This document shows positions 1 through 63,645 of a stretch of 64,000 bases of DNA, one piece after another. Made by a program: the position numbers and the translations under genes. A model generated the notes under the pieces. The model worked only from the letters and a program-made list of their open reading frames with translations. It had not been told where the DNA came from and did no database searches. How positions within the stretch are numbered: position 1 is the stretch's first letter; each line of letters begins with the position of its first letter. Source of the DNA: Cladophialophora immunda (Eukaryota; Ascomycota; Eurotiomycetes; Chaetothyriales; Herpotrichiellaceae); contig NW_015622542.1 of assembly GCF_000835495.1 (NCBI RefSeq), forward strand, positions 4,858,485 through 4,922,484, written 5' to 3'.

Positions 1-73
1 GCACATGTCTGCCTCTACATACCGACATAGCCTTGCCATTCCTCCTACAAGAATTCTTGTCCATCCAACCAAT

Positions 74-40800: not shown

Positions 40801-41462
40801 CCATCACTTCTCCATTCTCACTTCTCGAAATCGAAAGCACTGGATATTTATTCGATCATGTCGTTGCAGCCAGGGTATCAGGAATTAGCGGATGGCTTGA
40901 CCACGAGTTAGACTTCTTACGTCTGCCTTCGGAGTTTCTGAATCCGCATGCAGGTCTAGAGGTTGATAGCTTCGTTGAAGTCTGGATATTGATTTCTTAT
41001 GATGGCGAAGTTGGCAAAGTTGTTCCAACACCAGATGTTGATTCGCCATACATGAAAAGGCTCTTCAAGGACACCGCCGTTGCCGTTTCCCACATCCAGC
41101 CACAAAATATCTTGCGCACAGATATATTGCCACTCAAAATCGTCGAATGGTCCCCTGCTGGCACGACGCGATTTTTTCCCTTCGACGAAACTTTACAGGA
41201 AAGGTTTTGCGTGGCCCATTCCAAGGAGTCATGGGACGCGCTTCGACAAGACTTCAGTTTGGCTGCTGCAGAGGGTCTAAATTCATCAGTGGGTGACATG
41301 AGCAAAATGGAGCTTGAGGAGATCGAGCTTTGCAACAAGCACTTTCTGTCTATGGACGAGGATAATAAATTTAAAATCGATGCACGAAGCCGTTTCATAC
41401 TAGGCGAAAATTGGTGGCCTTGGGCCGGTGGGCATCGACCGAAATATGGACCGAACCATTGA
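37868..41462 (+). CDS. intact STAND protein with NACHT domain (fungal NLR-like)
   Basis: Two exons, 37868..38298 and about 38432..41462; about 1153 aa. The donor GTGAGT is clear. The acceptor CAAG at 38431 follows a CTGAC branch point but other in-frame acceptors exist, so the join is tentative. The N-terminus MDPITALSLACNVIQLVE with a helical first 140 residues is typical of fungal STAND N-terminal (Helo-like) domains. A low-complexity acidic linker precedes the NACHT NTPase: P-loop GKPGSGKST at about residue 380 and Walker B FLLVDGLDEIE near 504. The region after it contains VGFIHRSVHDFLRE, the usual end of the winged-helix part (DUF7791 type). No C-terminal WD40, ankyrin or TPR repeats are seen. 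Such proteins are linked to heterokaryon incompatibility and innate recognition; function here is inferred. Confidence 0.85.
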
Positions 41463-44084: not shown

Positions 44085-45826
44085 ATGACAATCCCCTCTC
44101 GATCCTGGAATGGCTGCGTTCGTTGCAGGAAGCGACGCCAGAAGTGTGGGGAGCAGAAGCCGCAATGCGTTCGATGTGAGAAGGACCAAGTGGATTGCTC
44201 CTACCAGAAACCCCTGAGATTTGGAGGACGGCCTTTTGCTCAATCGCGATTCGGGGCCTGTCTTTCAAAGAATACTGGAGGAGCCCGAAAAGCCGGTGCG
44301 TTTGCTGCGAATGATGATTCCTGTGCATGCGCGTCGTAGACTGAATTTCCACAACAGCAACCATTGATGGAGGATTTGTGTACACTTCGGCCTCAATCGC
44401 CAAGGTAGTCCCATCAGAGACCTCGCCATGCAAGCTGGATCCCGCGGCAGGGACAGAACCATTAGAGGCCGAGCAAGTGATTGAGGACGAGACTTCCTTG
44501 GATTTGATCCAAGTGAGTAAACGACTACCCGATCCGATATCCAGCCACGTCGACATACTGTCATTCATTCCTGGGAACAACCGCGCCCTCCTTCAGTACT
44601 TCACTTGCAATGCTTCCATGGCTCTGGCTACACACGCCTTTGTCCATCAGGAGGTTTGTGAATTGATATTACCAATGGCCCTTGGGAATCCCGCCCTCCT
44701 CCACGCCACCCTGGCCCTGGCGGCTATCCATCGGAATTCATTGACGTCCATGGCTGAAAATGAGATGGATGATGGCGCCCAAAGACTTGTCACCCACCTC
44801 ACGGCCACTAGCATTCGCCATTTGCGTCGAGACCTCCAAGATCCAAGATCCAGCCCACTGGCAGCTAAAGTGGCCACGACTCGAACCCTGTTCCTCTGTG
44901 AGGCCATTTCTGGATCTCACTCCCTTCGGGCCTGGAGAGCTCATTTCCTGGGAGCACGAGCCTTACTGTCTTCCCACGCAGGATCATCGCAGGGGTTTGA
45001 GCAGGATCCATCACTTCTTTTCCTGCAGCGGTGGTATAACATCACCGAAGCGCTCGTTGCTATCACAACTGACGGGCTATCAGCGGGCCAAATCGCTTGT
45101 GGTGGACCACGATACCTCATTGGCGAGGCTGAAGAGGCTGATGTTTGTATCGATATGTATACGGGCTGTGCGGAAGACATTTCAGTAGTGTTCCGAGAGA
45201 TCGGAGCTGTGGCTTGGGAGAGACGACGTGCAGCTGATGACCCTGGCCGACATCCCAGGCTTTCGGAACAGGATTTCCTGCGTGAAGCCGATCTCTTGGA
45301 GATGTCGGTCCGAAGGATGATTGAGCGTGACAAGGCTCGGTCAACCGTGTTCAACATTCCCGGCGGTCGCGATCTATCTGTGGAGGAGTCCAAGGAGTTC
45401 TTGCTTTGTAACGAAGCTTACCAACACACTGCGCTCATTCACATTCATCGACGGGTTCGGCGACTTCCACCCAATGCTGCAGCCGTGCAAGCGTCCGTCC
45501 AGAGGATTATCGAATGTGTCGAAAGTATTAGACCTGCTGCGACCTTGTCACCGCTAACTTTGCTGACAACCCCTCTCTTCACTGCGGGTTGCGAAGCGGC
45601 AGGTCCCGAACGTTGCAAGATCGCGCAGCTCTTGACCAACATGTTCACTCTTTTACGTCTACCAAACATGAAGCGTGCGTTACAAGTGCTCGAAGCCTTT
45701 TGGCGTGTATCGGAAGTTTCCGGTATTGATTGGGAGGATTTCTCGCGTGAGTTACATCTGCCATATAATAAAGGCCAGGCTGACGAGACTATAGGTCAAC
45801 GGAACTGGGATTTCTTGCCATATTGA
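44085..45826 (+). CDS. Zn2Cys6 transcription factor
   Basis: Two exons, 44085..44295 and 44358..45826, 62-nt intron; 559 aa. The zinc cluster is at the very N-terminus, with cysteines at 11, 14, 21, 28, 31 and 38 (C-x2-C-x6-C-x6-C-x2-C-x6-C), then a PLRFGGRPFAQSRFG segment typical of one Pezizomycotina subgroup. The regulatory part, with HEEVCELILPMA-like and LLHATLALAAIHR motifs, is the C-terminal fungal activator domain (Fungal_trans_2 type). It converges with the MFS transporter at 45978, 151 nt away, and may control the MFS/P450 pair; this is inferred from position. Confidence 0.88.
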
Positions 45827-45977: not shown

Positions 45978-47847
45978 TCATTTTTCTTGCTGAACGCTAC
46001 TTTCGACGCTTCGTATGTCTGGCAACTCATCGGACGAGAGCACTATGGGTTTTACCCACCTGTTACCCCATCGGTGGAGTACAAAATAAGTAAGTGGCAG
46101 CAAAACGGCGCAGACGATTGCCTGGGTGCCGAAGCACCATCCATATCCTGGGCGTCAAAGTCAGCCTCAATCCTCCAAGTCGGGGATCAACGTGTTGCTT
46201 ACCAACTGCGGCGGTCCAGTCGTAAATATACCAGGGAACGATAAACGCGGACATCTTTTTGGGGTCAGTCTCGACGGTCATGGTACTGAGGCTGATGTCC
46301 ACTCACATTTATGATGACGGAATAAAATGTTATGACCTCAATGGCGTGCTCCGGGTAGCAGTCAACGATATATGTCGACAAGGTCGTGTTGCCCGCTTGA
46401 AGGCCGACCGCAAACAGGAACAGAGCCACTTGACCGACCATCCAGTGCCATCCTTTCTGGACCGAAGCTCCCCAGACCGCAAGGCCAATGGCGGAGAGCA
46501 GGGCGCCGGGATAGCCGAGCCACAGCCTCATTTCTGGTGTTCGCTGGCCGTGGTTTTTCCTCGCTAGGCGGACGACGATCCAGTCGCTCAAATGGCCCGA
46601 GCAGAATATCTCGGCAAAGATGACCCCGATCAGAGCTCCGGTGAAGAACAAACCTTGGATCTGGATCTTGTACTCATAGTACGCCGCGGGGATCATTGAG
46701 AGCAGAGCCACGATCCTGCCTTGCTTTTAGTACTTGTTCGACGGGATTCGCCATCGGGGTCCACATACCACCAATAATGGAGAAATATATATCCGCAAAC
46801 ACTGGCGACCAACTTCGGGTACGCCCACAGCTTGCAGAATGTGATTAGGGTTGCCCAAGGTTTGGGGTGGGGGACACCTGGGATTTTGCGGATGTTCTGG
46901 GAGGAGTGTCAGCATGTCAAAGCACAATGCTTTCTCGAGACCTGTCTCACCAGCCAGGGGAGTTGTGTGGTTCGTTTGATGTCCACCGCGGGATTCTGCA
47001 AGGCTTCCCCACGCGCCTTTGCAGCGGCTTGTTGCAGCTCTAGAGCAACAACGTGGGCGCGAGGATATTGAGTTTCTGGCAGAAACAGGAGTTCCCAGAG
47101 CAAGAGAAATGCGAAGGCGATGGTGACATGGTAGGCCACCCAGTATTGGTTCACGGTGGCTATAAACCCGCCAACTGTCATGTGTGGTCAGTCCAACTCT
47201 CTCCTTTCACTCGGTAGCGACGGAAACTCACTGAGGCCGCCCAGGACGCTTCCTATGTTTGCAGACATGGCCCAGAGACCGATCCGAAACCCTCGTTCAT
47301 GCTCCCAAGAGATGTCGTTGATGATGCTGAGGCCCACGTTGGCCGCGGGGCCCGCTGCAAACCCTTGGAAAAACCTGGCTGCCATGTACTGGCCGATGGA
47401 TTGTCCCTTGATCGAGGTGCAGCCACTGGCCAGAACTGCGGTTGCTGTGGCAACGATGGTCACCACCCGGCGGCCGTATGTTTCTGCCAGCGATGAGGTG
47501 ACCAGAGGGCCAAACGCGAGGCCAAAGGCAGAGATGCCGAAGGACCAATTGACTTGGTTGTACGAGGCATCGAATTGCTCCTCGAGAAGCGAGAACGATG
47601 GCACCGGGGCAGTGGTCAAGTACGTCAACAGGAAGTAAAAGAAGCACACGATGCCGATGATGTTGTATTTCTGTAGCCTGGACCAGTTCAAAGGATCGAG
47701 GGAGTCTTGGGTCGGTGCCGGCGTCAATGGTTTGTCTCTGGCCTCAACTGGCAGATGGTATACGTCGGCCACGTCAACGGGCGAACTTTGTATCGATGCA
47801 TCGACCGCAACGGGCTTTTTCTCGACGTCGCTCACCTCGGAGGACAT
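45978..47847 (-). CDS. MFS transporter, drug:H+ antiporter type
   Basis: Six exons: 47847..47232, 47174..46951, 46896..46769, 46715..46307, 46254..46203 and 46147..45978; introns 57, 54, 53, 52 and 55 nt; 532 aa. The cytosolic N-terminus ends in DPLNWSRLQKY, the usual entry to helix 1 in this group. ETYGRR after helix 2 and the GFAAGPAANVGLSIINDI segment in helices 4-5 mark a DHA1-like carrier. Final helix and tail were recovered by splicing the last two introns. Such carriers export drugs or metabolites or move nicotinate-like acids. A TATATA box lies at 47953-47958, about 105 nt upstream. It is divergent from the P450 gene. Confidence 0.87.
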
Positions 47848-48766: not shown

Positions 48767-50596
48767 ATGCTTTTCTGGCTCCTGTTGCCGTACTTCGTCC
48801 TCGTCGCCGTCCTCTTCCAGGCCGTGCAGAGGCTGCGGTCGCCGGTGGCCCGGCTGCCGGGCCCGGGCTACACGGCCTGGACGTCGCTGGTGCTGAAGTA
48901 CCACGAATTCACGCACGGCCGGCGCCTGTACATCCACGCCCTGCACCGACGGTATGGGCCGGTCGTGCGGCTCGGGCCCGGCGAGGTGTCGTTCGCGACC
49001 GCCGACGCGGCCAAGGAGATCTACATGTCGGGCGGCAGCGGGTACGACAAGACGCCCTTCTACTCGCTGTTCACCCAGTTTGGGACGCGCACGCTGTTCT
49101 CGACGCTCCCCAGGGCCGACGTATGTATTCTGTCGTGACTGCATTTTTTCTTTTTCAAAAGGAAAGAAAAGCCCACCAGGCTGTAGTGGTGGTGGTGGTG
49201 GTGGCAGCGATGGTGGTCGGAATGAAGCAGGCATTATGGGCTAACTTCTCACGGGTTTTCTAGCACAGCTACATGAAGCGATACCTGGCCGACCGGTACG
49301 CGAACACCAACATCATGAAACCCGACATCCTGAACGGCATCTCCCAGCACGCCCGGGACTTTTTGAACAAGTGCCTGGACCAGTGTTACGGGAGTGATGG
49401 GTTCGCCGACATCTACGTAAGGGACTTCTGCCTCGCCTCCGCTCTGGGCCACTGCTGGGCCACTGCTGCTGCGCCCTGCAAAGACTGACGCGGACCTTTC
49501 TCAGGTATCTCTCCACTGCTTCGCCCTGGACGGGGTGACGCATCAGCTTTTCCACCCGTACGGCACGCACGCCAACAGGAACGAACGAGATCTGCGGCTG
49601 ATGCAGGAATTGTCTTACCACGATAGTCTGAAAAGTAATGTGTGGCCCGGATTGCAAGACAGTTGCGATCGAGTGTTGTTAGAGGAGTGACTAACCAGCG
49701 CTTTCAGGCAATGTCGCCATCTATTACATGCCGTGGCTCTCTGGTGTGGTCCACTACATCAGCCCTCCCAAGCCCGCGCCGCTGTCGAATGAATACGTCC
49801 TGAAGACTAGCGCACTCCCGTCGCCGTCGCCGTTCAGCCTCCTCTCGAAGCTCCAGGCACAAGCCAAGGCGACCAGCATGGCCCCCTACGCCGTGCCCGC
49901 CGAATGCAAGGACCACCTGGCCGCGGGCGTCGACACGACCGGCGACGCGCTCTGCTTTCTGATGCACCACCTGTCATTACCCACGCCGGCTTCGCAGCGC
50001 GTCCAGGGCCTCCTGCACAAAGAACTCGCCGAGAACGCCGCAGTACCCTTCGACCAACTCCCCTACCTAGACGCCGTGGTCAAGGAAGCCCTCCGCTGTT
50101 TTCCCCCGATACCCATGTCGATGCCGCGATGTGTGCCTCGCGGGGGCAGCACGATCGAAGGCCACTTCATCCCGCAAGGGACCATCGTGAGTTGTCAGGC
50201 CTACACGCTGCACAAAGATCCCGATGTGTTCCCCAACCCATTGGAGTTCTTGCCGGAGCGCTGGCTGGACAAAGCCGGCGAGGCAGAGAGGAACAGGTTA
50301 TTCTTCGCCTTCTCCAGCGGCGGAAGGGGATGTCTGGGCCGGCAGTAAGTTTCTTTCCCCTACTCTCTGGGTTTCCCCTGTATTTCTTGTCTGCCGTCGA
50401 ATAGGATGGCTAACTACTTGTGTGTGTCAAAAGCCTCGCCATAGCGGAGATGAAACTCCTCCTCCGCGAGGTCTACTCCCAGTGCCGCACGACCTTGTCT
50501 AGTCAGATGAACAGCGACATGGAGATGGAGGACCAGATCATTGCCAGTCGGCCCAAGGGCCAGAGCTGCAAGCTGGTGTTTGAGAAGGTCGTATAA
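48767..50596 (+). CDS. cytochrome P450
   Basis: Haem-thiolate monooxygenase. Five exons: 48767..49120, 49264..49416, 49505..49634, 49708..50344 and 50434..50596, introns 143, 88, 73 and 89 nt; 478 aa, a little short. The N-terminal membrane anchor MLFWLLLPYFVLVAVLFQAV is followed by a proline hinge (RLPGPGYTAW). I-helix AAGVDTTGDAL, K-helix KEALR (ExxR), FLPERW and the haem loop FSSGGRGCLGR with the ligand cysteine at about 421 are all present. The first intron contains a (GGT)n run near 49187-49205. The 5' exon is very GC-rich. Fungal P450s of this kind (CYP65/CYP68-like fold) act in secondary metabolism. Neighbouring exporter and regulators fit that role; substrate unknown. Confidence 0.88.
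49183..49206 (+). repeat. (GGT)n trinucleotide repeat in P450 intron 1
   Basis: About seven tandem GTG/GGT units inside the longest intron of the P450 gene. Confidence 0.85.
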
Positions 50597-51047: not shown

Positions 51048-53428
51048 TCAGTTATTGTGCTGTCGTACATGCTTCAGCGCCTCCAGGGCCTCCTCTACCT
51101 GCTCTACGGTTACGAATCAGCATATAGAACTTTCTCGGAGGTCGAGGGGACAGAGCAAAAACTTACGGACCATGCCGTTCAGAGCTTCAAACGCGACTGC
51201 ATAGTTCTGCAGCGCCCTCAGAACTCGGCCGACGCCGGCGTACAGATCCTCGATGCCCTTGTCGGCGGCTGAACTCCGTTGGTTGATGCACTGCATCTCG
51301 AGGCTTTTGTAGCATAATGTGAGCAGCGTGTAGCAGCTTTGCATGGCGCAGCAGGCAAACGAGGGCATAGTCCGTGGTGCCGGGGTCGAGGAGACGGGTG
51401 ACAACATTGGCGGAGAAGGTAGGGGGAGCGGCAGCTGCATCGGATTGGGGTAAGGGAATGATTCGAACGCCCGGCCGATGGCAAGCGCAGCCTTGAGGCA
51501 AGTCTTTGCAGCGGGCAGGTCAGTGATCGAGACGTTCTTGGTCAGCGCGTCTGCGTGGTCGCTAGATGCATCAACGGAAACCCCGCGAGGCGACTGCGAC
51601 CAAAGCCCGGGAAAGCCGCCGGACTGGAAGCCTTGGGGCGAAGTGTTTGAGAAGGCAGACGGGAGCATCGCGTGACACGAGCACCCCAGTGGGCGCGGGG
51701 AAGATACGTCCGCTTGGTCTAGATCGCAGTGACGACGGGTAAATATAGGGACGTCTTGGAAAGCGCGATACCGATGGAGTTTGATCCTCGCACTGTTGAG
51801 CTTGATCAGCGCCTGCAGTCGCAGTGATTTGGCCAGAGTGTGTTCTTCAGGGTCTGTAGGTGACAGGGTCGACGGCTCGTTCGGGGAGGACGCATATCTG
51901 AAAAGGACCGAATCCAAGTCGCTCTCAAGCATCGCTTTCCGTTGATCCAGCGTGCTGTCCCCGAGACCGCTGTCGAGGGCCTTCTTCAGCGCCACAGTGT
52001 ACTGTGTACACCTTAGGATACACTGCTGGGCTTCAATGAAAAACGACCATGCGTCGGAGTCCGCTGGCGATGTTGGCAACGGGGTCCTGAATTGATGAAA
52101 ATCAATCGAGATGATTGGAGGCTGGCTCAGCATGATTAGCCAGTGATACCCAACGATCCCGAATGATCAAGCTTACCGTGCTGCTGACAATCGAAGACTG
52201 CAGGACGACAATATACTAGGCAACAGGTCAGCGAGAAATATCCACACCAGGCATGACTCTGCGACTTACGGTCATCCACCAGGCGCGTCGACGCGCTTCT
52301 GTGTATTCGTCTAAAGAAAGATCGGAGATGTCGTGCAGGCAAAGTCTGATGGCAGCATCGTATGCTTGGCTGGCTCGATTTCTCATCTTCGCCAGATTCC
52401 CCCGCTGGGCGTATTCATAGATACTCAGTAATACGTGTGCCAGCACCCCTTCTAGCTCGACCGGCACACATGGATGAAGCTTTTCGCGATCGACCGATGG
52501 TCGACGGTGATCCAAAGCTTCAGACGGGTTGGTGGCAGATTCGAGCAACTCGGTCTCAATCTCAATGCTCTCCATGGCCATCTGGGAGAATGAGTGTGCT
52601 TGCTGCCTTCTGAGACATACAGACTCATCACTGTCAGGGTACTCGTCTTCCGGGTGGGGGATCAGAACGAGAATCGCCATTAATGCCATTACCAAAGGAG
52701 ATGCCGGCTCGAAGTATTTCGATTCGCTCATCGGGTCATCAACTTGCAGTGTCGTCACTGGCGGTGGCAGGATTGGAAAGTACGGATGAATGAAGATGTA
52801 GTAGGCATTGAGAATGGCTTCGTTTTCCTGATAGCTCCGAGTGATCGGCGTGTAGGGTTTGCCCAGTGAATCATCGTCCAAGGTATCGATTGTGTCACCG
52901 CCTTCGGAGACGGGCATGAATATATTGTCGAAGATCTGGTCGCTGTCGTCCTCGTCCTCGACGTCGATCAACCCAGCTCCGGGAGCGATCATGGTAGCAA
53001 TGAGGTCGTTGTGTATCTCTTCAGACGATAGCATCAGTGCATCCCAGTCAATATTGATGTCCGGGGCAATGTCTTGAGGCTGAGATGTTACTTCGTCAGC
53101 CCGCCGTTGCCTTTCCGCGGCCATAATGGCCTTTTTGCGCGACACACGGGGTCCACCACGGTTGCTTTTGACATAGCGGCATTCTTTGCCCCTTATCAGG
53201 CACTAGAAACACAATCAGGCACGGTCTTGAGTCAGTCGCGGCATCACCAAGCACATACATTGTTACACGGAACCTTGGCATCGCATCGAGTCCGAGACGC
53301 ACGGCTTGATCGGAGTTATAAGAGGAGCTCGCAAGTAGACGCTCGTCCAGCAGCGCTTACCAAGATGTACACGCCACCTTCACTGGTGGCAGGATGTTCT
53401 TCCTCCGGCGGCTTTGACTGGACGCCAT
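51048..53428 (-). CDS. Zn2Cys6 transcription factor, zinc cluster spread over three exons
   Basis: Six exons: 53428..53361, 53304..53259, 53202..52270, 52215..52177, 52121..51167 and 51103..51048; introns 56, 56, 54, 55 and 63 nt; 698 aa. The canonical cluster C20-x2-C23-x6-C30-x5-C36-x2-C39-x6-C46 is assembled from exons of 68, 46 and 933 nt, with two introns falling inside it; the perfect cysteine spacing validates the joins. A long acidic linker (DVEDEDDSDQIFD) is followed by a fungal regulatory domain (YYIFIHPYFPILPP, SPLVMALMAIL). It is the nearest regulator to the nitrilase, homoserine acetyltransferase and aspartokinase genes and is the best candidate for controlling them. Confidence 0.86.
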
Positions 53429-53913
53429 GGCCCCATTCTCCAAGACGGTAGAAGTAGACATGAGGTTTGCGGGGGCAGGTTCGGGGTTCCAACTTCCCAG
53501 ACTTGCAAATGTATTGATGAGCGTGGGGATCCTGAAGTTGCTCGCGCACGCAACCCTCCCTAAGCTTCCGAGATCCCGCTGTCAACAGGGACGTTGGGGG
53601 CGCAAGATTTAAGGCGACGAGACAGAGGCGCAGGAGAGAACAGGGACTCGACGTGATATTAATCTATTGCCTTGGGGCCCCGGGACTTGGCAGCCCTCTT
53701 CGTGGTCTCGGTGGTGAGCAATCCTTCGTACAGGTAGAGATAAGCAACTTTCTTATCACCCAATTAGATGCCCCAAAGGCTCTACATACACTAGACCGAG
53801 ATTGCCCCTCGTGGTGTTCTGGGGCCGTCTACTTGGTATAATATCTGGCAACTCGTCACGCCACAGAACCGGGGCCTAGGCTCAGTTGGTGAGGATTACC
53901 AGATCCGGCTTTC
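53429..53913. other. spacer between regulator and nitrilase
   Basis: 485 nt, regulator promoter and nitrilase 3' end. Only short frames. Confidence 0.4.
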
Positions 53914-54969
53914 TCAGGCACTGAAAACTACATGGTCTCCAGGCTTTCTATTGACGGTTAGCGTGAAAATATCTGGCCTCGCATAGCTCCCGACCGGGTC
54001 GAAATCCATTCTGGCCTGTATAAGGTCGTCCATCCTCAGTTGCCCGTAGACAATCTCTTCGCGATCCCAGACGGGCTCCGCAACAAATGTCCCCAACGGC
54101 CCGACGATGCAAGAACCACCATGGCTTAGAATGGCGTCCGGGGTCCAAGGAGAGCCGTCTGGTTGTCTGTCATGGTGTCCAGGCGAGAAGGGTGGATAGT
54201 CAGACGGAAAATCGGCCACCTTGCAGAACTGGTTGCACGAAATAACGAAACAGCGTCCTTCTTTCGCGATGTGCTGCATCGACGCCACCCACGAAGGCAG
54301 GTCATCGGCGTTCGGTGCGATGTAAACCTCGATTCCTTGTTGATATAGCGACAGTCTTGCAGCAGGCATATAGTTCTCCCAGCAGATGAGTCCACCGACA
54401 CGGCCAATTTCCGTATCCACAACCTGAAGTCCATCTCCTGCTCCTCTCCCCCACACGAGGCGTTCCGCTGCCTGCGAGAAATCATCATCAGTTGCTGGTT
54501 CCAGGTCCAAAGGCGCAAGAACACCTCTGGCTAGGATCCGGGGTTCCTAACATACTGTGGGGATGAGTTTTCGATGCGCATACAGCAGGTCGCCTGTTCT
54601 CGCGAGGAGTATCGCCGTGCAATACAAGGTTCCTCTTTCTTTCTCAATTATTCCTAGCGACAGGAACACGTTGTGGTCTCTTGCAATGGTCCGCAGCTCC
54701 TCGAATTCTGGAGAAGGAATCGCCACAGCCGAGTTGTAGTATTTTGAGAACCATTGGCGGCCTCGAGGCTCTCGTGCTCCTATTGTTGCATCGAAGGCGT
54801 AACGCCAGGGGTATGCGCTGAGGAACCCCTCTGGAAAGACAACTAGATCGGCCTTTTCTTGCGCGGCGGCCTTCGTGAAGTGTCTGACTCGCTGTATCGA
54901 AGCAGGGAGATCGAATGCGACTGGAGCCGCTTGAACTGCGGCGACCTTGAAACTAGCCAACGTAGACAT
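53914..54969 (-). CDS. nitrilase (carbon-nitrogen hydrolase)
   Basis: Hydrolyses a nitrile to the carboxylic acid and ammonia; cytosolic. Two exons, 54969..54556 and 54471..53914, with an 84-nt intron; 323 aa. The ATG at 54969 (MSTLASFKVAAVQAAP) begins directly at the first strand of the fold; upstream in-frame codons have only a GTG start. The catalytic triad is complete: E47 in VVFPEGFLSAYPW, K134 in HRKLIPT and C168 in LICWENYMP. CWEN is the true-nitrilase form, distinct from amidase relatives. The conserved SHGGSCIVGPLG-like late motif is also present. It is divergent from the homoserine O-acetyltransferase with 411 nt between starts. The natural substrate is unknown; cyano amino acids are considered in the findings. 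Confidence 0.92.
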
Positions 54970-55380: not shown

Positions 55381-56817
55381 ATGTGTGTCTATAGGCGACC
55401 AACAAAAGGCACAATGAACGTCGGTATGTTGGACTATTGCAAAGCGTTTCCAAGGCTACCCTCTAATCCTTTGGCAGAACTCAATGCCCACCCAGAATAC
55501 AATTACTACACGAGCCTAGTGCGGAACTTGAAAACCGCCGTCGTACCGACGTTTACTTTGGAATCGGGTCAAGAGCTCCATCGAGTTCACGTAGCCTACA
55601 GCGCCTGGGGCACCTTGAATGAGGAGGCAGACAATGTTCTCTTAATCTGCCACGCTCTCACGGGGAGCAGTGACGTGGAGGATTGGTGGAAACCTTTGAT
55701 CGGCCGAGGCAAGGCTGTCGATACAAGCCGGTTCTTTGTCATTTGCTTCAATTCCCTCGGGTCGCCGTACGGCTCCGCATCACCACTCAGTACAGACCCG
55801 ACGACTGGGAAGCCTTACGGACCAACCTTCCCGGATACAACTTTCAGAGACGATGTCAGGATACAGAAGATTGTTCTCGACGCGCTTGGGGTCAAACAGA
55901 TTGCATCGGTCATCGGTGGATCGATGGGCGGCATGATTGCCCTCGAGTGGGCTTTGTGTACCCCTCCAGGTTACGTGAAGACGGTGATCCCTATATCGAC
56001 CTCAGCATATCAAACAGCGTGGGGGATCTCCTGGAACACGTCACAAATACGATGCATCCAGGCCGATTCACAATTTCGCGGCGGATACTACGCTCCTCAT
56101 CCTCAAAGTCAGCCCGTGCAGGGCTTGGGGGCCGCCAGGATGATCGGGATGCTCACCTACCGATCGTACACTTCTTTCGAAGCACGGTTTGGTCGACGCA
56201 AGTCGGGACCAAAACGGCCGTCGCAGTCTTTCTCAAGGCCCATGACCTCCATCCCCTCTCCACCGCCCGAGGCGAGAGACGACATCCCCGAGACAACGGC
56301 GTCGAAAACCGAGGCGCAGGAGTTCGGCCCGACTACAATATATTCCGCGCAAAGCTACATGCAATACCAGGCCGACAAGTTTCTGAAGCGCTTCGATGCC
56401 AATTGCTACATCCACCTTTTGCGGAAGATGGATTCTCACGATATTACAAGAGGGAGGAGCCCAACCATGCCCTTGCCGTCCGAGGAGCACCCCAGCGTCA
56501 AGAGCGTTGCCGCCGTTCTGGCGACGTGTACAGCACCGGCACTGGTGGTGAGCATAGATTCAGACCTGCTGTTTCCGGCCGAGCAGCAGACGATCCTGGC
56601 CAATTCGCTACCTCGAGCAAAACTCATGAAGCTCGACTCGTCCGACGGACACGACGGCTTTCTGCTGGAAATGTCCGCCATGGAAGAATCGATCAGTGCC
56701 TTCCTTCGGGACCACTGCACCGGCATCTTCGAAGCTCCTGCTCTCGAAGGCGGTGAAGACGAAAACGAAGACGTTGTAACGAATAGTGTGTTTGGCGAGT
56801 TGGATTCTCAGTTTTGA
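55381..56817 (+). CDS. homoserine O-acetyltransferase (Met2-like)
   Basis: Moves an acetyl group from acetyl-CoA to homoserine, giving O-acetylhomoserine. Intronless, 478 aa, alpha/beta-hydrolase fold. The nucleophile elbow is GGSMGGM with S181; the acid is in SIDSDLLFP (D393/D395) and the base is H424 in SDGHDGFLLE. Oxyanion-side residues CHALTGSSD and CFNSLGSPYGSASP are also seen. The start could be the first ATG at 55381 or MNVGMLDY at 55414. It is followed in the same direction by aspartokinase and O-acetylhomoserine lyase, so the genes for making and using O-acetylhomoserine are adjacent. This pairing, rather than the gene itself, suggests a dedicated paralogue like FUB5 of Fusarium. A separate housekeeping copy would be expected elsewhere. 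Confidence 0.92.
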   Translation: MCVYRRPTKGTMNVGMLDYCKAFPRLPSNPLAELNAHPEYNYYTSLVRNLKTAVVPTFTLESGQELHRVHVAYSAWGTLNEEADNVLLICHALTGSSDVEDWWKPLIGRGKAVDTSRFFVICFNSLGSPYGSASPLSTDPTTGKPYGPTFPDTTFRDDVRIQKIVLDALGVKQIASVIGGSMGGMIALEWALCTPPGYVKTVIPISTSAYQTAWGISWNTSQIRCIQADSQFRGGYYAPHPQSQPVQGLGAARMIGMLTYRSYTSFEARFGRRKSGPKRPSQSFSRPMTSIPSPPPEARDDIPETTASKTEAQEFGPTTIYSAQSYMQYQADKFLKRFDANCYIHLLRKMDSHDITRGRSPTMPLPSEEHPSVKSVAAVLATCTAPALVVSIDSDLLFPAEQQTILANSLPRAKLMKLDSSDGHDGFLLEMSAMEESISAFLRDHCTGIFEAPALEGGEDENEDVVTNSVFGELDSQF

Positions 56818-57371
56818 GGATGGTGTATTCTGCGAGGTGCTTGATAGATTATTTCTCCTTTGATGTTAAATTAAATGCCAAAAGAATGCTATTCATTGTC
56901 CCAACAGCTCTGCCCTTGCGTCCGCTATCCTCTCTTCAGGTTAATTTGTACCATGACCAATTCGTGGCATTCAAGCTCGAGAAACTCGACTGTTTCGGGG
57001 TCGAATATGACGAACTTGCATTCCAAGGCCATTGGTCAATTCGGGACTAATCCACCGGGAGTTTGAGGGTGGATTATGTCGAGGTAGTGAGATTGTCGGC
57101 CGGAAGAAGGTCAATCGCCGTCGGAGCGTTGTCCTGGTCTTATCTAACTTGCCATGTCACCTTTCGGCGACTGCTTATTCCAGCCCTGGTGTCCTGGCTC
57201 CTGAGGCACCTATCTCCGCCATGCGTCGGGCACGGCCTTCAGGGAAGAATATTATATCTATAATCTGTATAATATTGTCTGGTTGCGGTTCTTTCTGATG
57301 TGGCGTTTGTATCAATTCCAATCTTTGCGGTGTTGTATTGTACAAAACTACAAAAGGCAAGGAGAAACAAT
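56818..57371. promoter_or_regulatory. spacer and aspartokinase promoter
   Basis: 554 nt; AT-rich DNA at 57245-57280 lies about 100 nt upstream of the aspartokinase ATG. The frame open from 57300 uses a GTG start and is leader. Confidence 0.4.
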
Positions 57372-59018
57372 ATGATTGCACGAACAGAGGAATATCGACC
57401 ATGGCTCGTCCAGAAATATGGCGGCACCAGTGTTGGCAAGCTGCTGGACACAATTACAGAGTCTATCATTCCACAATACCGGCAAGACTACAACGTCGCA
57501 GTTGTTTGTTCGGCGCGTTCTAGCGCAAGCAAGTCAGCCGGTACAACGAATCTCCTCTTAAGGGCCCTAGCTTGTGCCGTCTCAGAGGAGGCGAGAGGAG
57601 CCGATTTCGACGAGGTTGTTGATGTTATCCAAAGTGAACATCTGTTGGTTGCAGAATCCCTGCCCAGCGACGGTGCTCTCCAATCCGCCTCAAAGCTCAT
57701 TCAGCAGCTGCGACAGAACATTGTCGAAGAATGCGAGGCCTTGAGAAAATTCTTACGGGCCACTCGGGTCATTGGTGAAGCCTCCGACAGAACGCAAGAT
57801 AGGGTGCTTGGTGTTGGAGAAAAGCTTTCCTGCTTGGTGGTTGCGGCCGCGTTGTCACTCAGAGGCGTGGAAGCAGAGATGGTGAACCTGGAAAACATTG
57901 TCCAAGTTGCGGACAAGCGTTCGACTCGTGAACAGCAAGCAGCCTACAAGCAAAACCCTATTCTATTCCTTCAGGGACTTCGAGACGCTGTCAGAGACGC
58001 AATCCTCCAGTGCTCTGCGTCGGGGAAAGTGCCAGTCGTTACGGGGTTTTTCGGCTCCATGCCACATTCGCTACTCCATACCGTCGGCCGTGGATATTCA
58101 GACTTGTGTGCTGCGCTGTGTGCGGTCTCATTAGACGCTGAGGAGCTCCAAATATGGAAGGAGGTCGCTGGTATCTTCACAGCCGACCCTACGAAAGTAT
58201 CAACAGCCAGAGTCCTGCCCATGATCACCCTGGAGGAGGCGGTCGAGTTGACATATTACGGCAGTGAGGTGATCCACCCTCTGACGATGTCGCTTCTAAA
58301 CAAGGAAGACATCAACCTGCGCTTGAAGAACGTGAAGGATCCTGCCGGCGCCGGCACTGTGGTCTACTCGACAACGCCTGGCTCGAGTCCCGTGCAGACA
58401 CCCAGTTCTACGGAGATGGAGATCAGCCGGTCATTATTCATGACTTCGAATGGATACTACGGCAAAGACCAGGCTAAACGAGTGCCTACCGCCATTACAA
58501 CGAAGGATTCAATCACTCTCGTCAACATCACTTCGAACGGCAAGCTGCCTCCACAAGCATTCCTTGGTCAGGTTATCGGGATTCTTGGACAGCATCAGCT
58601 CTCCGTCGACCTAGCGAGCAGCAGCCGTCAGTCACTCAGCCTAGCGGTATCGGCCTATGGATTGGTGAATGTCTCTGACGCGATCGATCAAGCCCTCCCC
58701 GACCTCGAAGAATTTGGCACAGCAACCATTGTGCCGAAAATGTCCATCATCTCGGTGGTCGGCCATAAAATGAGAAACATGGTCGGAATCGCAGCGGAAA
58801 TCTTCTCGGCTTTGGCAAGTGCTCGCATCAATATCCGTCTGATTTCGCAAGGAGCGAGCGAGATCAACATATCGTTCGTCGTCAGGACGCAAGATGCGTT
58901 ACTGGCGATGGAGGTCATCCACTCGCAAGTCATGCAAATTCCTGGACACGTGGAGCGCGAGATTTCGCTCATAACAGGTGAGAAATACACATTGTCGCTG
59001 CCTCCTCTAGCATACTGA
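57372..59018 (+). CDS. aspartokinase
   Basis: Phosphorylates aspartate, the first step to homoserine, threonine and methionine. Intronless, 548 aa from the ATG at 57372 (MIARTEEYRPW). The kinase domain has VQKYGGTSVGK at residues 13-23, GVGEKLS and VTGFFG, and the GYSDLCAAL loop (usually GRGxSDxxA, here GRGYSDLCA). Two C-terminal ACT domains follow, from about residue 375: ITLVNITSNGK and MSIISVVGHKM, the latter with NIRLISQGASEINISFVV, nearly canonical. The first ACT domain reads VDLASSSRQSLSLAV where fungal enzymes usually have a TSEVHVS-type effector motif, which hints at altered feedback control. Position between the acetyltransferase and the lyase suggests a pathway-dedicated copy like FUB3. 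Confidence 0.93.
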   Translation: MIARTEEYRPWLVQKYGGTSVGKLLDTITESIIPQYRQDYNVAVVCSARSSASKSAGTTNLLLRALACAVSEEARGADFDEVVDVIQSEHLLVAESLPSDGALQSASKLIQQLRQNIVEECEALRKFLRATRVIGEASDRTQDRVLGVGEKLSCLVVAAALSLRGVEAEMVNLENIVQVADKRSTREQQAAYKQNPILFLQGLRDAVRDAILQCSASGKVPVVTGFFGSMPHSLLHTVGRGYSDLCAALCAVSLDAEELQIWKEVAGIFTADPTKVSTARVLPMITLEEAVELTYYGSEVIHPLTMSLLNKEDINLRLKNVKDPAGAGTVVYSTTPGSSPVQTPSSTEMEISRSLFMTSNGYYGKDQAKRVPTAITTKDSITLVNITSNGKLPPQAFLGQVIGILGQHQLSVDLASSSRQSLSLAVSAYGLVNVSDAIDQALPDLEEFGTATIVPKMSIISVVGHKMRNMVGIAAEIFSALASARINIRLISQGASEINISFVVRTQDALLAMEVIHSQVMQIPGHVEREISLITGEKYTLSLPPLAY

Positions 59019-60004
59019 TCTCATCACTAGGTCCATGGCTTTACTGAACACGGTGTATATGTTTCTCTTCAGCGTGCATTTGGGGATAGGCTTGGGTCTC
59101 TACTGCAATCACATTTTCTAGATGCCAGATAGAGATAGAACGAATCATCATGAATGTGTATATCAGAGAATTGACAACCTGTATACCTCTACCCTCAATA
59201 ATAGTCGTCTTATTCGTAACTAGAATACTCGGTGCTTTCTTCGTCTCCGCCCCAGTAGAGCCTAATTCCTCTATTCATGTGATTCGCGGGGTCGATATGT
59301 GACAACTCCTTTTCAAATGGGCACAAAAGAACCTCTACCACACAGAGTCGTCTCTGAGCAACAGGGCACGCTCGATGTCTTCTGATGTCCCTCTTTTCCT
59401 TCACCAGGGGATGTTTACAGAATGCCGCGGCCACTTTGCTAGGGAAACTTAGCCGTCCGGTATAGTGGATGGCCACGGAAATCTGACGGCCCCCAGGTTG
59501 CCGGGGTTTGCTTTTGATAAGCGGCATATGCCACACAACTTTAAGGGGCCAATCAACAAACACAGTCCGGCTTCGGCCTTTGCATAGGAGACTGACTGCA
59601 TACTGCAGGCGTGCATCTGCGTCCCGCTAATCAGACAGTAAACATTCGTTAATTAGAGCTCAATGGCTATGCACACTATCACGCATGCGTGGATGAGCAC
59701 ATTCTCCTTTCCTGGCCTCACCAGACTCCGTCTCCCCGGTCTTTGTCGAGATAAGCAGGGGGCCGCTATCTTCATTCGTAGCAAAGGCCGCGCGATGCAG
59801 TATACGTATCGACTAGATCGGCAGCGTGAGAGTTGTATGATGGGCATACACTATATCAAGACTGACTCCTACCGTGAATAGGACTGAGTAGCTCTCCATC
59901 TTCAACATTCAACGTGCCTCAATCAATCCTTTGGTTTCCTTTCTCTCACCACCAGCTTCATTGCCCTTTTTCTTACCTCACAAGGACACAGACAGCAAGG
60001 AAAA
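59019..60004. promoter_or_regulatory. spacer and OAH-lyase promoter
   Basis: 986 nt between two same-strand genes. Only short frames. CT-rich DNA just before 60005 resembles a strong fungal leader. Confidence 0.4.
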
Positions 60005-61438
60005 ATGGTTTCCGGACATTTGGGCGAAGTGAGCAAGGCTCCAGAGTACGAGACCGTCGCTCTGCACGGTGGACAACAGCCCGATCCCATCAACGGCTCA
60101 AGAGCTGTGCCCCTGTACCAAACATGCGCGTACAACTTCACCGACGCCTCGGATGGTGCAAGTAAGTTTGCGTGGTCAAAGGATGGCTACGTGTATACCC
60201 GAATGGGCAACCCCACCAACACGGTCTTCGAGACCAGGATGGCGATGCTCGAGGGAGGCGTGGGCGCCGTGGCGACTGCCAGCGGCCATGCCGCCCAGTT
60301 CATGGCCATCACCTCCGTATGCGAGCCTGGTCACAACTTCATCAGCACCATGAACCTCTACGGCGGCACACACAATCAGTTCCGAGTCTACATGAAGAAG
60401 TTCAACATCAATTGCAAGTTCATGCAGGGACAAGACCCGCAAGAGATCAAGAAACTGGTCGACGACAACACCAGAGCCGTGTACATTGAGACCATCGGAA
60501 ATCCCCAATTCAACGTCCCCAATATCAAGGCCATCGCTGACGTCTGCCACGAGGCGGGTATCCCACTGATCGTGGACAACACCTTCGGCATGGGCGGATA
60601 TCTTGCACAGCCGATCAAGCAAGGCGCCGACATCGTCACTGCCTCGTGCACCAAATGGATCGGCGGCCATGGGACGTCGATGGGCGGGATCGTGATTGAC
60701 GGAGGCCACTTTGACTGGTCTGCCTCTGGCAAGTTCCCCGGCTTCACCGAGCCGTCAGAGGGTTACCACGGCATGCGGTTTTGGGAGACGTATGGCTACA
60801 AGGCCCTGGCAGCCAAGCTCCGCATGGACGCCATGAGAGACCTGGGCCCCTGCATGTCGCCCTTCAACGCCTGGCTCTTCCTGCAGGGCCTCGAGTCCCT
60901 TCCAGTCCGCGCCGACCGCCACGTCTCGAACACGCTTGCGTTTGCACAGTGGCTGGAGAAGCACCCCTGTGTCGCGTGGGTCAACTACCCCGGTCTCAAA
61001 TCCCACCCCGACTACGAGCTCGCGCAGCGGGTGCTGCCCAAGGGAGCCGGAGCCGTCCTCACCTTCGGCGTGGCGGGCAACATCGACGAGGTCGAAGCCG
61101 TCGTCAACAACCTCAAGCTCTGCTCCCATCTGGCCAACGTCGGCGACGCGAAGACCCTGATCATCCACCCCTGGCGGACCACCCACCAGCAGATCCCCGA
61201 CCAGGAGAAGATCAAGGGAGGCGTCACGCCCGACATGATCCGCATCAGCCTCGGCTTGGAGCACATCAACGACATCATCCACGACTTCGAGCAGGCCTTC
61301 AAGGCCGCGGGTCTCAAAGGGGCCAAGGACTGGGTGCCGACGTGGAAGAAAGGAATGGAGGGCGAGGAGTGGTCCAAGGGCACATTATACGCACCGAAGC
61401 CCAATGGTGTCAAGACGGAGGTGGTGACGAGTGTTTGA
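60005..61438 (+). CDS. O-acetylhomoserine (thiol)-lyase family PLP enzyme
   Basis: PLP-dependent gamma-replacement enzyme: O-acetylhomoserine plus a nucleophile (sulfide in primary metabolism) gives homocysteine or another gamma-substituted amino acid plus acetate. Intronless, 477 aa. The PLP lysine is K217 in ASCTKWIGGHG; YTRMGNPTN and the ASGHAAQF phosphate loop are present, as are VDNTFGMGGY and the C-terminal RISLGLEHINDI. The start MVSGHLGEV is preceded by AAAA, a good context. Its length and motifs are those of fungal Met17/CysD. It stands two genes from the acetyltransferase that makes its substrate, as FUB7 does in Fusarium; FUB7-like enzymes use carbon nucleophiles. Which nucleophile is used here cannot be read from sequence. 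Confidence 0.93.
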   Translation: MVSGHLGEVSKAPEYETVALHGGQQPDPINGSRAVPLYQTCAYNFTDASDGASKFAWSKDGYVYTRMGNPTNTVFETRMAMLEGGVGAVATASGHAAQFMAITSVCEPGHNFISTMNLYGGTHNQFRVYMKKFNINCKFMQGQDPQEIKKLVDDNTRAVYIETIGNPQFNVPNIKAIADVCHEAGIPLIVDNTFGMGGYLAQPIKQGADIVTASCTKWIGGHGTSMGGIVIDGGHFDWSASGKFPGFTEPSEGYHGMRFWETYGYKALAAKLRMDAMRDLGPCMSPFNAWLFLQGLESLPVRADRHVSNTLAFAQWLEKHPCVAWVNYPGLKSHPDYELAQRVLPKGAGAVLTFGVAGNIDEVEAVVNNLKLCSHLANVGDAKTLIIHPWRTTHQQIPDQEKIKGGVTPDMIRISLGLEHINDIIHDFEQAFKAAGLKGAKDWVPTWKKGMEGEEWSKGTLYAPKPNGVKTEVVTSV

Positions 61439-62133: not shown

Positions 62134-63645
62134 ATGGCCCAGGTCAAGACCCTCCGGAACATATATGGGAGGGGCCACGAGAACCGCATCTCCCCCAAGG
62201 ACACGGCCATCAAGGGCCCTAATATCATCGCGATCAAAGCAATCATCAAAGGGCTCATCCTCGTCCAGCTGACCTTTTTTCTCCTCTTCTGCTACATCTT
62301 TGGCACACTGTATGTCTCAAACTCGCACGTCCACAATCTGAGCGTTGTGTTCGTCGACTATGACCAGGGTCTCGTCGGGCAGTCCGTGTGGACGGCGTAC
62401 AACCAGCTCAAGGGCGACGACTTCCCGACCCTGGACCTGCGGAGCGCGTCAGAGCATCCCACGCCGGAGTCGATCCGGCGCAGCGTCTGCAAGACGGACT
62501 TCTGGGCTGGCTTCTACGTCTCGGCCGGCGCATCCGAGCGCCTCGCTACGGCCTTGGGTGGAGGAGAGGCGGCGCTGAGGTACGACCCGGCAGACGTGAT
62601 GGCATACGTTTGGAACGAGGCGCGGTGGCCCACGACGGTGGAAAGCTATCTCGCGTCCAACTTGGTCAAGCTCTCAACCGCTGCTCAGGGGGCGTACCAC
62701 TCCATCAACGGCACCAGCGCCATCCGGGCTCTGAATATGTCTTCCCCACAGGCGGTTGCGGCGTTGTACAACCCTTGGCAAGTCCAAAGCATCAACATCC
62801 AGACCACGAACCAGGGGCCACGCACTGTCTACAACACCATTGTCGTGGTCCTCATCATCATCAAGCAGTTCTTCTTCTTACTGCTCATCAATGGCGTCTG
62901 CAGCACCTTCAAGCTGTACCTCCGCCTCAAACCGCACCACCTTGTCTTCCGCCGTCTCCTGGGCAGCTCCATCTCCACGTTTCTCGGCAGCCTGCTACTC
63001 ACGGGCGCCATCTGGGCGTTCCGCGCCAACTGGGCCGTCAACGGCAACCAGTTCGTGCTGACGTGGATGACGTACTGGCTCTACGAGGAGATCAACTTCT
63101 TCTTCATCGACGCGGCGACGGCGTGGGTCCCGGCCCCGTTCATGCCGAGCGTGCTGGTCACCTGGGTCATCATGAACGTCTCGTCGACCCTGCAGCCGCT
63201 CGAGCTCGGCGCGGGCTTCTTCCGGTGGATGTACGCGCTGCCCGCGCACGAAATGTACGAGACCCTCGTCGACATCTGGTCCGGCGGGTGCAACCCCCAG
63301 CTGTACCGCGCCCTGCCCATCCTCTTCTCGTGGTGGATCGTCTTCACGCCGCTGGCCATGCTCGGCGTCCTCCGGCGGTGCCACTTCGCGGCCATTGACT
63401 TCGACAAGGAGGAGGCCGCCTTCCAGCAGCGGTTCCAGGAAGCCAAGGACTTTGAGAGGAAGCGCGACCGGCAGCGCGGGGCGGAGGGCGCGGCGGAGAA
63501 AGAACCCATCGACCAAGAGGACGACGTCGAGCTGGCCAATATTTTGCGGAAGCAGGAGACCGAAATGAGGTCGCTGTATACCTCCGAAAGCCGATCCAGG
63601 TATGGGCCTGGTATCGTGGCGCCAGGGGCGGAGCGTATTACCTAG
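62134..63645 (+). CDS. SNG1-like multi-pass membrane protein (DUF3533)
   Basis: Intronless, 503 aa. One N-terminal membrane helix (about 36-58, LILVQLTFFLLFCYIFGTLYV) precedes a large extracytoplasmic domain starting HNLSVVFVDYDQG, then five or so helices in the C-terminal half (VVVLIIIKQFFFLLL, STFLGSLLLTGAIW, FMPSVLVTWVIMNVSS, LPILFSWWIVFTPLAMLG). A charged cytosolic tail with KDFERKRDRQR closes the protein. This is the DUF3533 family, whose yeast member SNG1 gives resistance to nitrosoguanidine and affects membrane-lipid asymmetry. It could protect against or move a product of the neighbouring enzymes. The 3' half is GC-rich. Confidence 0.87.
   Translation: MAQVKTLRNIYGRGHENRISPKDTAIKGPNIIAIKAIIKGLILVQLTFFLLFCYIFGTLYVSNSHVHNLSVVFVDYDQGLVGQSVWTAYNQLKGDDFPTLDLRSASEHPTPESIRRSVCKTDFWAGFYVSAGASERLATALGGGEAALRYDPADVMAYVWNEARWPTTVESYLASNLVKLSTAAQGAYHSINGTSAIRALNMSSPQAVAALYNPWQVQSINIQTTNQGPRTVYNTIVVVLIIIKQFFFLLLINGVCSTFKLYLRLKPHHLVFRRLLGSSISTFLGSLLLTGAIWAFRANWAVNGNQFVLTWMTYWLYEEINFFFIDAATAWVPAPFMPSVLVTWVIMNVSSTLQPLELGAGFFRWMYALPAHEMYETLVDIWSGGCNPQLYRALPILFSWWIVFTPLAMLGVLRRCHFAAIDFDKEEAAFQQRFQEAKDFERKRDRQRGAEGAAEKEPIDQEDDVELANILRKQETEMRSLYTSESRSRYGPGIVAPGAERIT

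What the first reader, a model, noticed from the sequence alone, without database searches (positions are those of the whole stretch)
55381..61438. Clustered aspartokinase, homoserine O-acetyltransferase and O-acetylhomoserine lyase: a FUB3/FUB5/FUB7-like precursor module
Three consecutive same-strand genes convert aspartate toward homoserine, acetylate it and substitute it. In fungi these housekeeping steps are normally scattered. The same trio is built into the fusaric acid cluster of Fusarium (FUB3, FUB5, FUB7), where the lyase joins a carbon unit to O-acetylhomoserine. Here it sits with two Zn2Cys6 regulators, a P450, an MFS exporter, a nitrilase and an SNG1-like protein, but with no PKS or NRPS inside the window. 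This points to an undescribed pathway that makes a gamma-substituted amino acid or a pyridine/pipecolate-like product.
Basis: partly seen in the sequence, partly recalled or inferred. Interest (0 to 1): 0.87.

Follow-up and report, generated by a model that had tools for sequence, protein, structure and literature searches.

The report
Fungal homoserine-substitution cluster beside a nitrilase
A black-yeast fungus keeps spare, divergent copies of three amino-acid enzymes side by side next to a nitrilase, probably to make and modify an activated amino acid (homoserine); the arrangement resembles one in the fusaric acid pathway, but its last enzyme has a separate ancestry.

Summary
HAT (55381-56817), AK (57372-59018) and OAH lyase (60005-61438) are intact single-exon genes on one strand. 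Each has a divergent second copy elsewhere in the genome; homoserine and semialdehyde dehydrogenase domains matched once each. The genome is Cladophialophora immunda or very close.

The FUB reading is half right. The lyase is not a FUB7 orthologue: FUB7 is 70% identical to this fungus's housekeeping copy and 49% to the window lyase, and tree and AU test (p 0.007) separate them. FUB3 and FUB5 could not be compared. The nearest ketosynthase match is 445 kb away; no PKS/NRPS was recognised in the next 49 kb. AK and HAT of this type share a contig length in 56 cases across two 120-hit lists, so the pair is widespread; 6 of 35 hits of the lyase clade share one with AK and/or HAT.

The nitrilase divergent from HAT is plant-NIT-like, nearest among solved structures to the beta-cyanoalanine enzyme NIT4. 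Best guess: a dedicated O-acetylhomoserine gamma-substitution module, cyanide being a leading but unproven nucleophile. Whether nitrilase, P450, MFS, regulators and SNG1-like protein belong is untested; no shared promoter motif was found.

The parts
55381..56817 (+). homoserine O-acetyltransferase (MetX family), cluster-type paralogue, 478 aa, single exon
   Evidence: TIGR01392 424 bits, below its 500-bit cut-off; NF001209 364 bits, above cut-off 331; 100% over 451 columns to C. immunda CLAIMM_08968
57372..59018 (+). aspartokinase with ACT domains, cluster-type paralogue, 548 aa, single exon
   Evidence: TIGR00657 299 bits over cut-off 208.7; 99% over 516 columns to C. immunda CLAIMM_08969
60005..61438 (+). 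O-acetylhomoserine lyase / sulfhydrylase family PLP enzyme, 477 aa, own clade distinct from FUB7 and MET17
   Evidence: TIGR01326 600 bits over cut-off 495
53914..54969 (-). nitrilase, plant-NIT-like, 323 aa, two exons (intron GTATGT...GCAG, by eye), transcribed divergently from the HAT gene; membership in the cluster untested
62134..63645 (+). DUF3533 (SNG1-like) membrane protein; next gene downstream is DNA primase large subunit; membership untested; DUF3533 matches at other places of the genome too
48767..50400 (+). cytochrome P450, multi-exon (approximate span, exons by eye); membership untested
46265..47847 (-). MFS transporter, multi-exon (approximate end); membership untested
51117..53450 (-). 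Zn2Cys6-type regulator, multi-exon (zinc cluster read by eye; no Pfam match in the two pieces tested); membership untested
44085..45826 (+). Zn2Cys6 / Fungal_trans_2 regulator; membership untested

Best explanation
A dedicated O-acetylhomoserine module. The cluster aspartokinase starts the aspartate branch. The housekeeping semialdehyde and homoserine dehydrogenases complete homoserine. The cluster acetyltransferase activates it. The cluster lyase replaces the acetoxy group on the gamma carbon with a nucleophile through a PLP-bound vinylglycine intermediate (family knowledge). Shown: gene content, duplication, lyase ancestry separate from MET17 and FUB7, frequent contig sharing of AK and HAT and its occurrence with this lyase clade, catalytic motifs kept. 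Inferred: extra flux to O-acetylhomoserine, and that the three genes act together. Most likely specific chemistry, about 0.3 by itself: the nucleophile is cyanide or a cyanide-derived carbon, giving gamma-cyano-alpha-aminobutyrate, which the NIT4-like nitrilase turns into glutamine or glutamate; that would be cyanide or nitrile assimilation, with the MFS and SNG1-like proteins as exporters. The module is FUB-like in logic but not a relocated FUB cluster.
For: Second copies scattered: AK on C4 (44%), HAT on C4 (58% and 44% in two pieces), lyase on C3 (54%). HSD and ASD one match each, so of these five steps only entry, activation and substitution are duplicated. AK and HAT 120-hit lists share 56 contig lengths, 27 of them under 500 kb and 4 under 100 kb; four of these pairs bear consecutive locus tags (CLAIMM_08968/08969, AYO22_03430/03431, LTR85_010777/010778, ACJ41O_006359/006360). 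6 of 35 lyase-clade hits share a contig length with AK and/or HAT: Dendryphion both, Paecilomyces AK, Lepidopterella (20-kb contig), Grosmannia, Parahypoxylon and Hypoxylon NC0597 HAT. Lyase clade of 33 rows, support 100/100, stem 0.52. Catalytic motifs kept; near-fixed clade changes at residues 50, 54, 57, 62 beside the YTR loop; R or V at residue 391 in 29 of 30 clade rows with a letter there, S in 12 of 20 others. Nitrilase: NIT4 294 bits, next 150, a cyanide hydratase 116. Deleting fub3 or fub5 in F. fujikuroi lowers fusaric acid by 20% and 40% (PMC6167834 passage), so such duplicates do feed a pathway there. Two plant-type nitrilases of basidiomycetes act best on beta-cyanoalanine (PMC7503981). 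An OAH sulfhydrylase forming gamma-cyano-alpha-aminobutyrate is cited (Omura 2003) in PMC9317851 (passages).
Against: No 7- or 8-base word is shared by five or more of six promoters, and Zn2Cys6 triplet pairs are no more shared than in shuffles, so co-regulation is unsupported. None of the 120 best lyase hits exceeds 83% identity (84% over tree columns), although C. immunda, other Cladophialophora and Fonsecaea are in the same collection with AK and/or HAT at 87-96% in the listings: the lyase is absent or unannotated in near relatives. 29 of 35 lyase-clade hits share no contig length with the capped AK and HAT lists. NIT4-like nitrilases are common in Ascomycota (over 500 NitAb homologues, PMC7503981), so adjacency may be accidental; whether a nitrilase accompanies AK-HAT elsewhere could not be searched. 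The lyase scores best to sulfhydrylase models.
Confidence: 0.62

Rival explanations
1. A carbon-nucleophile pathway to a non-proteinogenic amino acid (pipecolate or picolinate type), like Fub7, CndF (recalled) or FlvA, whose aldehyde or keto partner is made outside the cluster.
For: Same enzyme trio as FUB3/5/7; flanking P450, MFS and two regulators. FlvA makes 5,5-dimethylpipecolate from O-acetylhomoserine and alpha-ketoisovalerate with FlvB (PMC8902786 passage), so a simple keto acid can serve. UniRef calls several relatives of the AK 'Aspartate kinase FUB3', labels that may reflect real closeness.
Against: Nearest KS match 445 kb away, no condensation domain near, none among the 11 downstream ORFs scanned; lyase not in the FUB7 lineage. 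No imine reductase or SDR among the window ORFs scanned.
Confidence: 0.3
2. Ordinary methionine/sulfur metabolism with extra gene dosage: the trio makes more homocysteine from sulfide, for example under high demand or for volatile thiol release.
For: Lyase matches OAH_OAS_sulfhydrylase at 600 bits with catalytic motifs kept; a homocysteine S-methyltransferase gene lies 54 kb upstream.
Against: No CYS3/MetR-type or CPC1-type pattern in the ten stretches scanned between 42.5 and 64 kb (short-pattern scan); a separate housekeeping lyase exists; clade-specific substitutions next to the active-site loop.
Confidence: 0.22
3. The AK-HAT pair is a real module but the lyase, nitrilase, P450 and transporters are accidental neighbours, the lyase being a separate arrival in this strain.
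For: No lyase hit above 83% among the 120 listed although AK and HAT of C. immunda are there (96% in the listings, 99% and 100% over tree columns); lyase GC3 0.81 against 0.63 (HAT) and 0.59 (AK); the P450 exon is also high at 0.78.
Against: Members of the same lyase clade share a contig length with AK and/or HAT in 6 of 35 listed hits. Own MET17 also has raised GC3 of 0.69, so expression level may explain it. HAT and lyase tree distances among window, Lepidopterella and Dendryphion stand in ratios of 6 to 8 for all three pairs, as if the lyase travelled with HAT.
Confidence: 0.2

Closest known systems
Fusaric acid cluster FUB3/FUB5/FUB7 (Fusarium)
   Same: Aspartokinase, homoserine O-acetyltransferase and O-acetylhomoserine lyase built into one cluster with Zn2Cys6 regulators and an MFS transporter (FUB list in PMC6738028 and PMC10967133, passages).
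   Different: Nearest KS match 445 kb away; the lyase belongs to another clade (49% to FUB7, which is 70% to this fungus's housekeeping copy); a plant-type nitrilase and a DUF3533 protein lie beside the trio. FUB3 and FUB5 not compared.
Flavunoidine FlvA / citrinadin CndF type C-C forming OAH lyases
   Same: Gamma-substitution of O-acetyl-L-homoserine by a PLP lyase (FlvA from a PMC8902786 passage; CndF recalled).
   Different: No terpene cyclase or NRPS among the window ORFs scanned; orthology not tested, no sequences at hand.
Loline LolC with aspartokinase-like LolA (recalled, no call)
   Same: OAH lyase plus an aspartokinase-related gene in one cluster.
   Different: No further loline genes were recognised among the window ORFs scanned; HAT present here. 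No sequence comparison made.
Bacterial gamma-cyano-alpha-aminobutyrate synthase (OAH sulfhydrylase, Omura 2003, cited in PMC9317851) followed by a nitrilase
   Same: OAH lyase family and a nitrilase of the plant (cyano-amino-acid) type together.
   Different: Cyanide activity not shown here; fungal, with dedicated AK and HAT, regulators and transporters nearby.

Membership tests
Fusaric acid (FUB) cluster | FUB1-type reducing PKS in the cluster | tested here: not met
   KS search of the whole genome, 20 of 20 candidates scored: nearest match C2:4468502-4469110, 445 kb from the HAT gene
Fusaric acid (FUB) cluster | FUB8 NRPS-like reductase in the cluster | tested here: inconclusive
   No condensation domain near (which would not detect a protein lacking one); none among 11 Pfam-scanned ORFs of the next 49 kb; the AMP-binding search scored only 14 of 187 candidates
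Fusaric acid (FUB) cluster | FUB7 orthologue | tested here: not met
   Tree and AU test p 0.0068 (the group was named after seeing the tree, and FUB7 is one of the long rows); 48.6% identity
Fusaric acid (FUB) cluster | FUB3 and FUB5 orthologues | not testable with these tools
   No FUB3 or FUB5 sequence was at hand; UniRef names such as 'Aspartate kinase FUB3' for relatives are labels, not a test
Cluster-type AK-HAT paralogue pair of Pezizomycotina | AK and HAT outside the housekeeping lineage and on one contig | tested here: met
   (long housekeeping branches 2.29 and 1.71 noted)
OAH lyase / sulfhydrylase family (TIGR01326) | family score above cut-off and catalytic motifs kept | tested here: met
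   600 against cut-off 495; motifs
NIT4-type (beta-cyanoalanine) nitrilase | closest to NIT4 among known nitrilases | tested here: inconclusive
   NIT4 best by far in the PDB, but only solved structures were compared and NIT1-3 were not in that listing; sequence does not separate NIT1-3 and NIT4 types in fungi (PMC7503981 section 2.1)
NIT4-type (beta-cyanoalanine) nitrilase | activity on beta-cyanoalanine or gamma-cyanoaminobutyrate | not testable with these tools
   needs enzyme assay

The most novel reading that the evidence does not exclude
A fungal cyanide- or nitrile-assimilation cluster: dedicated aspartokinase and homoserine acetyltransferase feed a specialised OAH lyase that fixes cyanide as gamma-cyano-alpha-aminobutyrate, and a NIT4-like nitrilase releases glutamine or glutamate. 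This would be a gamma-carbon counterpart of the plant beta-cyanoalanine pathway, packaged as a regulated gene cluster whose AK-HAT core is spread over Pezizomycotina.
Probability: 0.22. Interest if true: 0.72.

Novelty: new variant of a known kind. Interest (0 to 1): 0.5.

Why it matters
It suggests that building an O-acetylhomoserine supply line into a gene cluster is not peculiar to fusaric acid. The AK-HAT pair co-occurs in many Pezizomycotina, and lyases of at least two lineages have been recruited. Finding what nucleophile the second lyase lineage uses would name a whole set of orphan clusters that PKS/NRPS-based mining overlooks, and could show a fungal route for fixing cyanide into amino acids.

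Tried and rejected
Direct FUB7 orthology: rejected. PKS or NRPS just beyond the window edge: 49.2 kb downstream fetched and ORFs listed (the middle's output was cut, and relisted ORFs of 200 aa or more in L022:1300-5000). 11 ORFs were Pfam-scanned (10, one): DNA primase large subunit, adenylate kinase, a TPR protein, Myb, a WDR3-like protein, flavohaemoglobin-like protein, PEP-mutase fold, isochorismatase, P450, homogentisate dioxygenase, permease. Smaller ORFs and exons were not scanned. Shared regulatory motif: none. CYS3/MetR, CPC1 and CBF1 patterns: none in ten stretches scanned. Repeats of 40 bp or more within 44-64 kb: none. tRNA genes in the window and Rfam matches in 42-64 kb: none. 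Ten literature searches: no listed title and no passage opened (11 papers) describes this cluster; long lists were seen only in part, and most subscription papers are not held. The AMP-binding search scored too few candidates to use. GC3 values printed for SNG1 and MFS are out of frame and were not used. Structure prediction was not run: coordinates cannot be inspected here and the fold is not in doubt. Rows dropped: lyase hits P0023, P0034 and P0035 (under 380 aa) were left out of the lyase tree, and 17 of the 85 listed hits below P0035 were used; the AK tree used 44 of 120 hits and the HAT tree 48 of 120, chosen by me for spread and named species.
Full report
What is there. The three genes are intact single-exon open frames on the + strand: homoserine O-acetyltransferase (HAT) 55381-56817, aspartokinase (AK) 57372-59018 and O-acetylhomoserine (OAH) lyase 60005-61438. 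The lyase scores 600 bits against NCBIfam TIGR01326 (cut-off 495) and the AK 299 against TIGR00657 (cut-off 209). The HAT scores 424 against TIGR01392, under its 500-bit cut-off, and 364 against NF001209, over its cut-off of 331. A nitrilase (54969-53914, two exons) is transcribed away from the HAT, with 411 bases between the start codons. Beyond it lie a Zn2Cys6-type regulator, a P450, an MFS transporter and a second regulator; downstream of the lyase lies a DUF3533 (SNG1-like) gene.

Which organism. The AK is 99% identical over 516 columns to CLAIMM_08969 and the HAT 100% over 451 columns to CLAIMM_08968 of Cladophialophora immunda (96% each in the search listings). The window therefore comes from that species or a very close one (Chaetothyriales). 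The two consecutive locus tags show the HAT-AK pair side by side there too.

Second copies. Each gene has a divergent counterpart elsewhere: AK at C4:532473-533777 (44%), HAT at C4:2931524-2933035 (58% and 44% in two pieces), lyase at C3:4090124-4091449 (54%). Weaker relatives of the lyase on C7 and C2 are 25-35% identical. Homoserine dehydrogenase and semialdehyde dehydrogenase domains gave one match each. So the duplicated steps are entry, activation and substitution.

Not a displaced FUB7. A tree of 53 lyases puts the window protein in a clade of 33 rows (100/100, stem length 0.52) with Lepidopterella, Dendryphion, Nothophoma, Paecilomyces, Rasamsonia, Grosmannia, Fusarium solani, Hypoxylon, Daldinia and others. 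FUB7, yeast Met17 and this fungus's own housekeeping copy lie on the other side. FUB7 and Met17 are long rows. Forcing FUB7 into the window clade costs 46.6 log units (p-AU 0.0068); I named that group after seeing the tree, which makes the test less strict. FUB7 is 70.0% identical to the housekeeping copy of this fungus and 48.6% to the window lyase. The lyase in FUB and the lyase here were therefore most likely recruited separately. FUB3 and FUB5 could not be placed, since no sequence was at hand. One paper reports FUB3 and FUB7 orthologues, but no FUB4-6, FUB8 or FUB10, in a beetle-associated Fusarium (PMC6167834 passages). Another finds a FUB1-like PKS in Verticillium whose other locus genes do not resemble FUB genes (PMC9495618 passages).

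AK and HAT. In the AK tree (46 rows) the housekeeping copy stands alone on a very long branch (2.29), so its place is unsure. In the HAT tree (50 rows) the housekeeping copy, also long (1.71), falls with four basidiomycete HATs; the window HAT is in a 45-row group (100/100) of ascomycete proteins. In both trees the Chaetothyriales rows sit with Dothideomycetes rather than with Paecilomyces, Rasamsonia or Thermoascus (Eurotiales): AK 99/97, HAT only 87/77. The lyase also groups with Dothideomycetes (100/98, 8 rows, four of them unnamed). Class names are recalled. Horizontal spread is possible but was not tested.

A widespread pair. The AK and HAT lists (120 hits each) share 56 longest-contig lengths; 27 of these contigs are under 500 kb and 4 under 100 kb. 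If HAT lay at random in 40-Mb genomes, about 4 would be expected over 119 of the 120 AK contigs. This is a proxy, as only the longest contig per protein cluster is given and both lists stop at 120. Four of the pairs have consecutive locus tags; two pairs with JGI-style numbers do not, and such numbers need not follow gene order. Of 35 hits of the lyase type (32 of them in the tree), 6 share a contig length with AK and/or HAT hits, one (Dendryphion) with both; 29 share none with these capped lists. In Fusarium kuroshium the AK of this type is predicted as one 887-residue protein with a semialdehyde dehydrogenase (P0232), which may be a fusion or two neighbouring genes merged by annotation.

A puzzle. 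None of the 120 best lyase hits exceeds 83% identity, although C. immunda, other Cladophialophora and Fonsecaea are present in the same collection with AK and/or HAT at 87-96%. Either the lyase is missing from those genomes or it is not annotated within the length limits of the search. I could not settle this. GC3 is 0.81 for the lyase and 0.78 for the P450 exon, against 0.63 (HAT), 0.59 (AK) and 0.57 (the neighbouring primase gene); the housekeeping lyase has 0.69. Composition alone does not prove a late arrival. HAT and lyase tree distances among window, Lepidopterella and Dendryphion stand in ratios of 6 to 8 for all three pairs, which speaks for a shared history.

No PKS partner found. The nearest ketosynthase match is 445 kb from the HAT gene, condensation domains are farther, and the 49.2 kb read beyond the window begin with DNA primase large subunit, adenylate kinase and a TPR protein. 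These searches are exon by exon, and only 11 downstream ORFs were Pfam-scanned. A cluster limit near 63.6 kb is likely. From +33 kb on there is a group with a flavohaemoglobin-like protein, isochorismatase, a P450, homogentisate dioxygenase and a permease.

What the lyase may do. The PLP lysine motif (CTKWIGGHG), YTR, LYGGT, VDNT and MIRIS motifs are kept (their roles are recalled from the cystathionine gamma-synthase family). Against 20 other enzymes, 13 positions separate the clade. Four (50, 54, 57, 62) lie just before the YTR loop, which in this family reaches into the neighbouring active site (recalled). Residue 391, in HPW[x]TTH, is R or V in 29 of the 30 clade rows with a letter there and S in 12 of 20 others. 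An altered second substrate is plausible but inferred. Fub7 itself can also make homocysteine from sulfide (PMC8086630 passage), so one family member can take several nucleophiles.

The nitrilase. Its best match among solved structures is NIT4 (294 bits); the next nitrilase scores 150 and a cyanide hydratase 116. The Glu-Lys-Cys residues are present (FPEGF, HRKL, CWEN). Other nitrilase-like genes of this genome are at most 45% identical in pieces. [quoted passage not shown]). The same paper reports over 500 ascomycete homologues of one of them and says that sequence does not separate NIT1-3 from NIT4 types in fungi. OAH sulfhydrylase forming gamma-cyano-alpha-aminobutyrate is known (Omura 2003, seen as a citation in PMC9317851). 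Put together, the lyase followed by the nitrilase would fix cyanide as glutamine or glutamate. This is the most novel reading, at about one in five to one in three.

Against a single regulon. No 7- or 8-base word is shared by five of six promoters, and Zn2Cys6 triplet pairs are no more shared than in shuffles. No CYS3/MetR or CPC1 pattern was found in the ten stretches scanned. Membership of nitrilase, P450, MFS, regulators and SNG1-like protein rests on adjacency alone.

Verdict. The specific FUB kinship of the lyase is rejected and the product is open. It is a new variant of a known kind.

Noticed in passing
window 2-1066: Homocysteine S-methyltransferase (PF02574) at the window edge, 54 kb upstream of the trio; probably unrelated, but it is the step after homocysteine.
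   Followed up: no
window 24347-26082: A tetratricopeptide-like repeat stretch (by eye) part of which reads as masked bases (X in the translation).
   Followed up: no
window 38217-41462: NACHT / NPHP3_N protein of 1081 residues, a fungal NLR-like gene.
   Followed up: no
L022:3282-4607 to L023:7828 (about +33 to +47 kb beyond the cluster): Group with a flavohaemoglobin-like protein, PEP-mutase fold, isochorismatase, P450, homogentisate dioxygenase and permease: possibly an aromatic catabolism cluster.
   Followed up: partly
P0232 (Fusarium kuroshium): Cluster-type aspartokinase and aspartate-semialdehyde dehydrogenase in one predicted protein, so the module may extend by one more step in that lineage.
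   Followed up: partly
AK and HAT trees: Chaetothyriales copies group with Dothideomycetes rather than Eurotiales, which hints at horizontal spread of the pair; not tested formally.
   Followed up: partly
near CLAIMM_08951 (PMC5595782 passage): The C. immunda paper names CLAIMM_08951, 17 locus tags from the HAT, as a PcuC homologue probably transferred from bacteria; whether it lies in this window was not checked.
   Followed up: no
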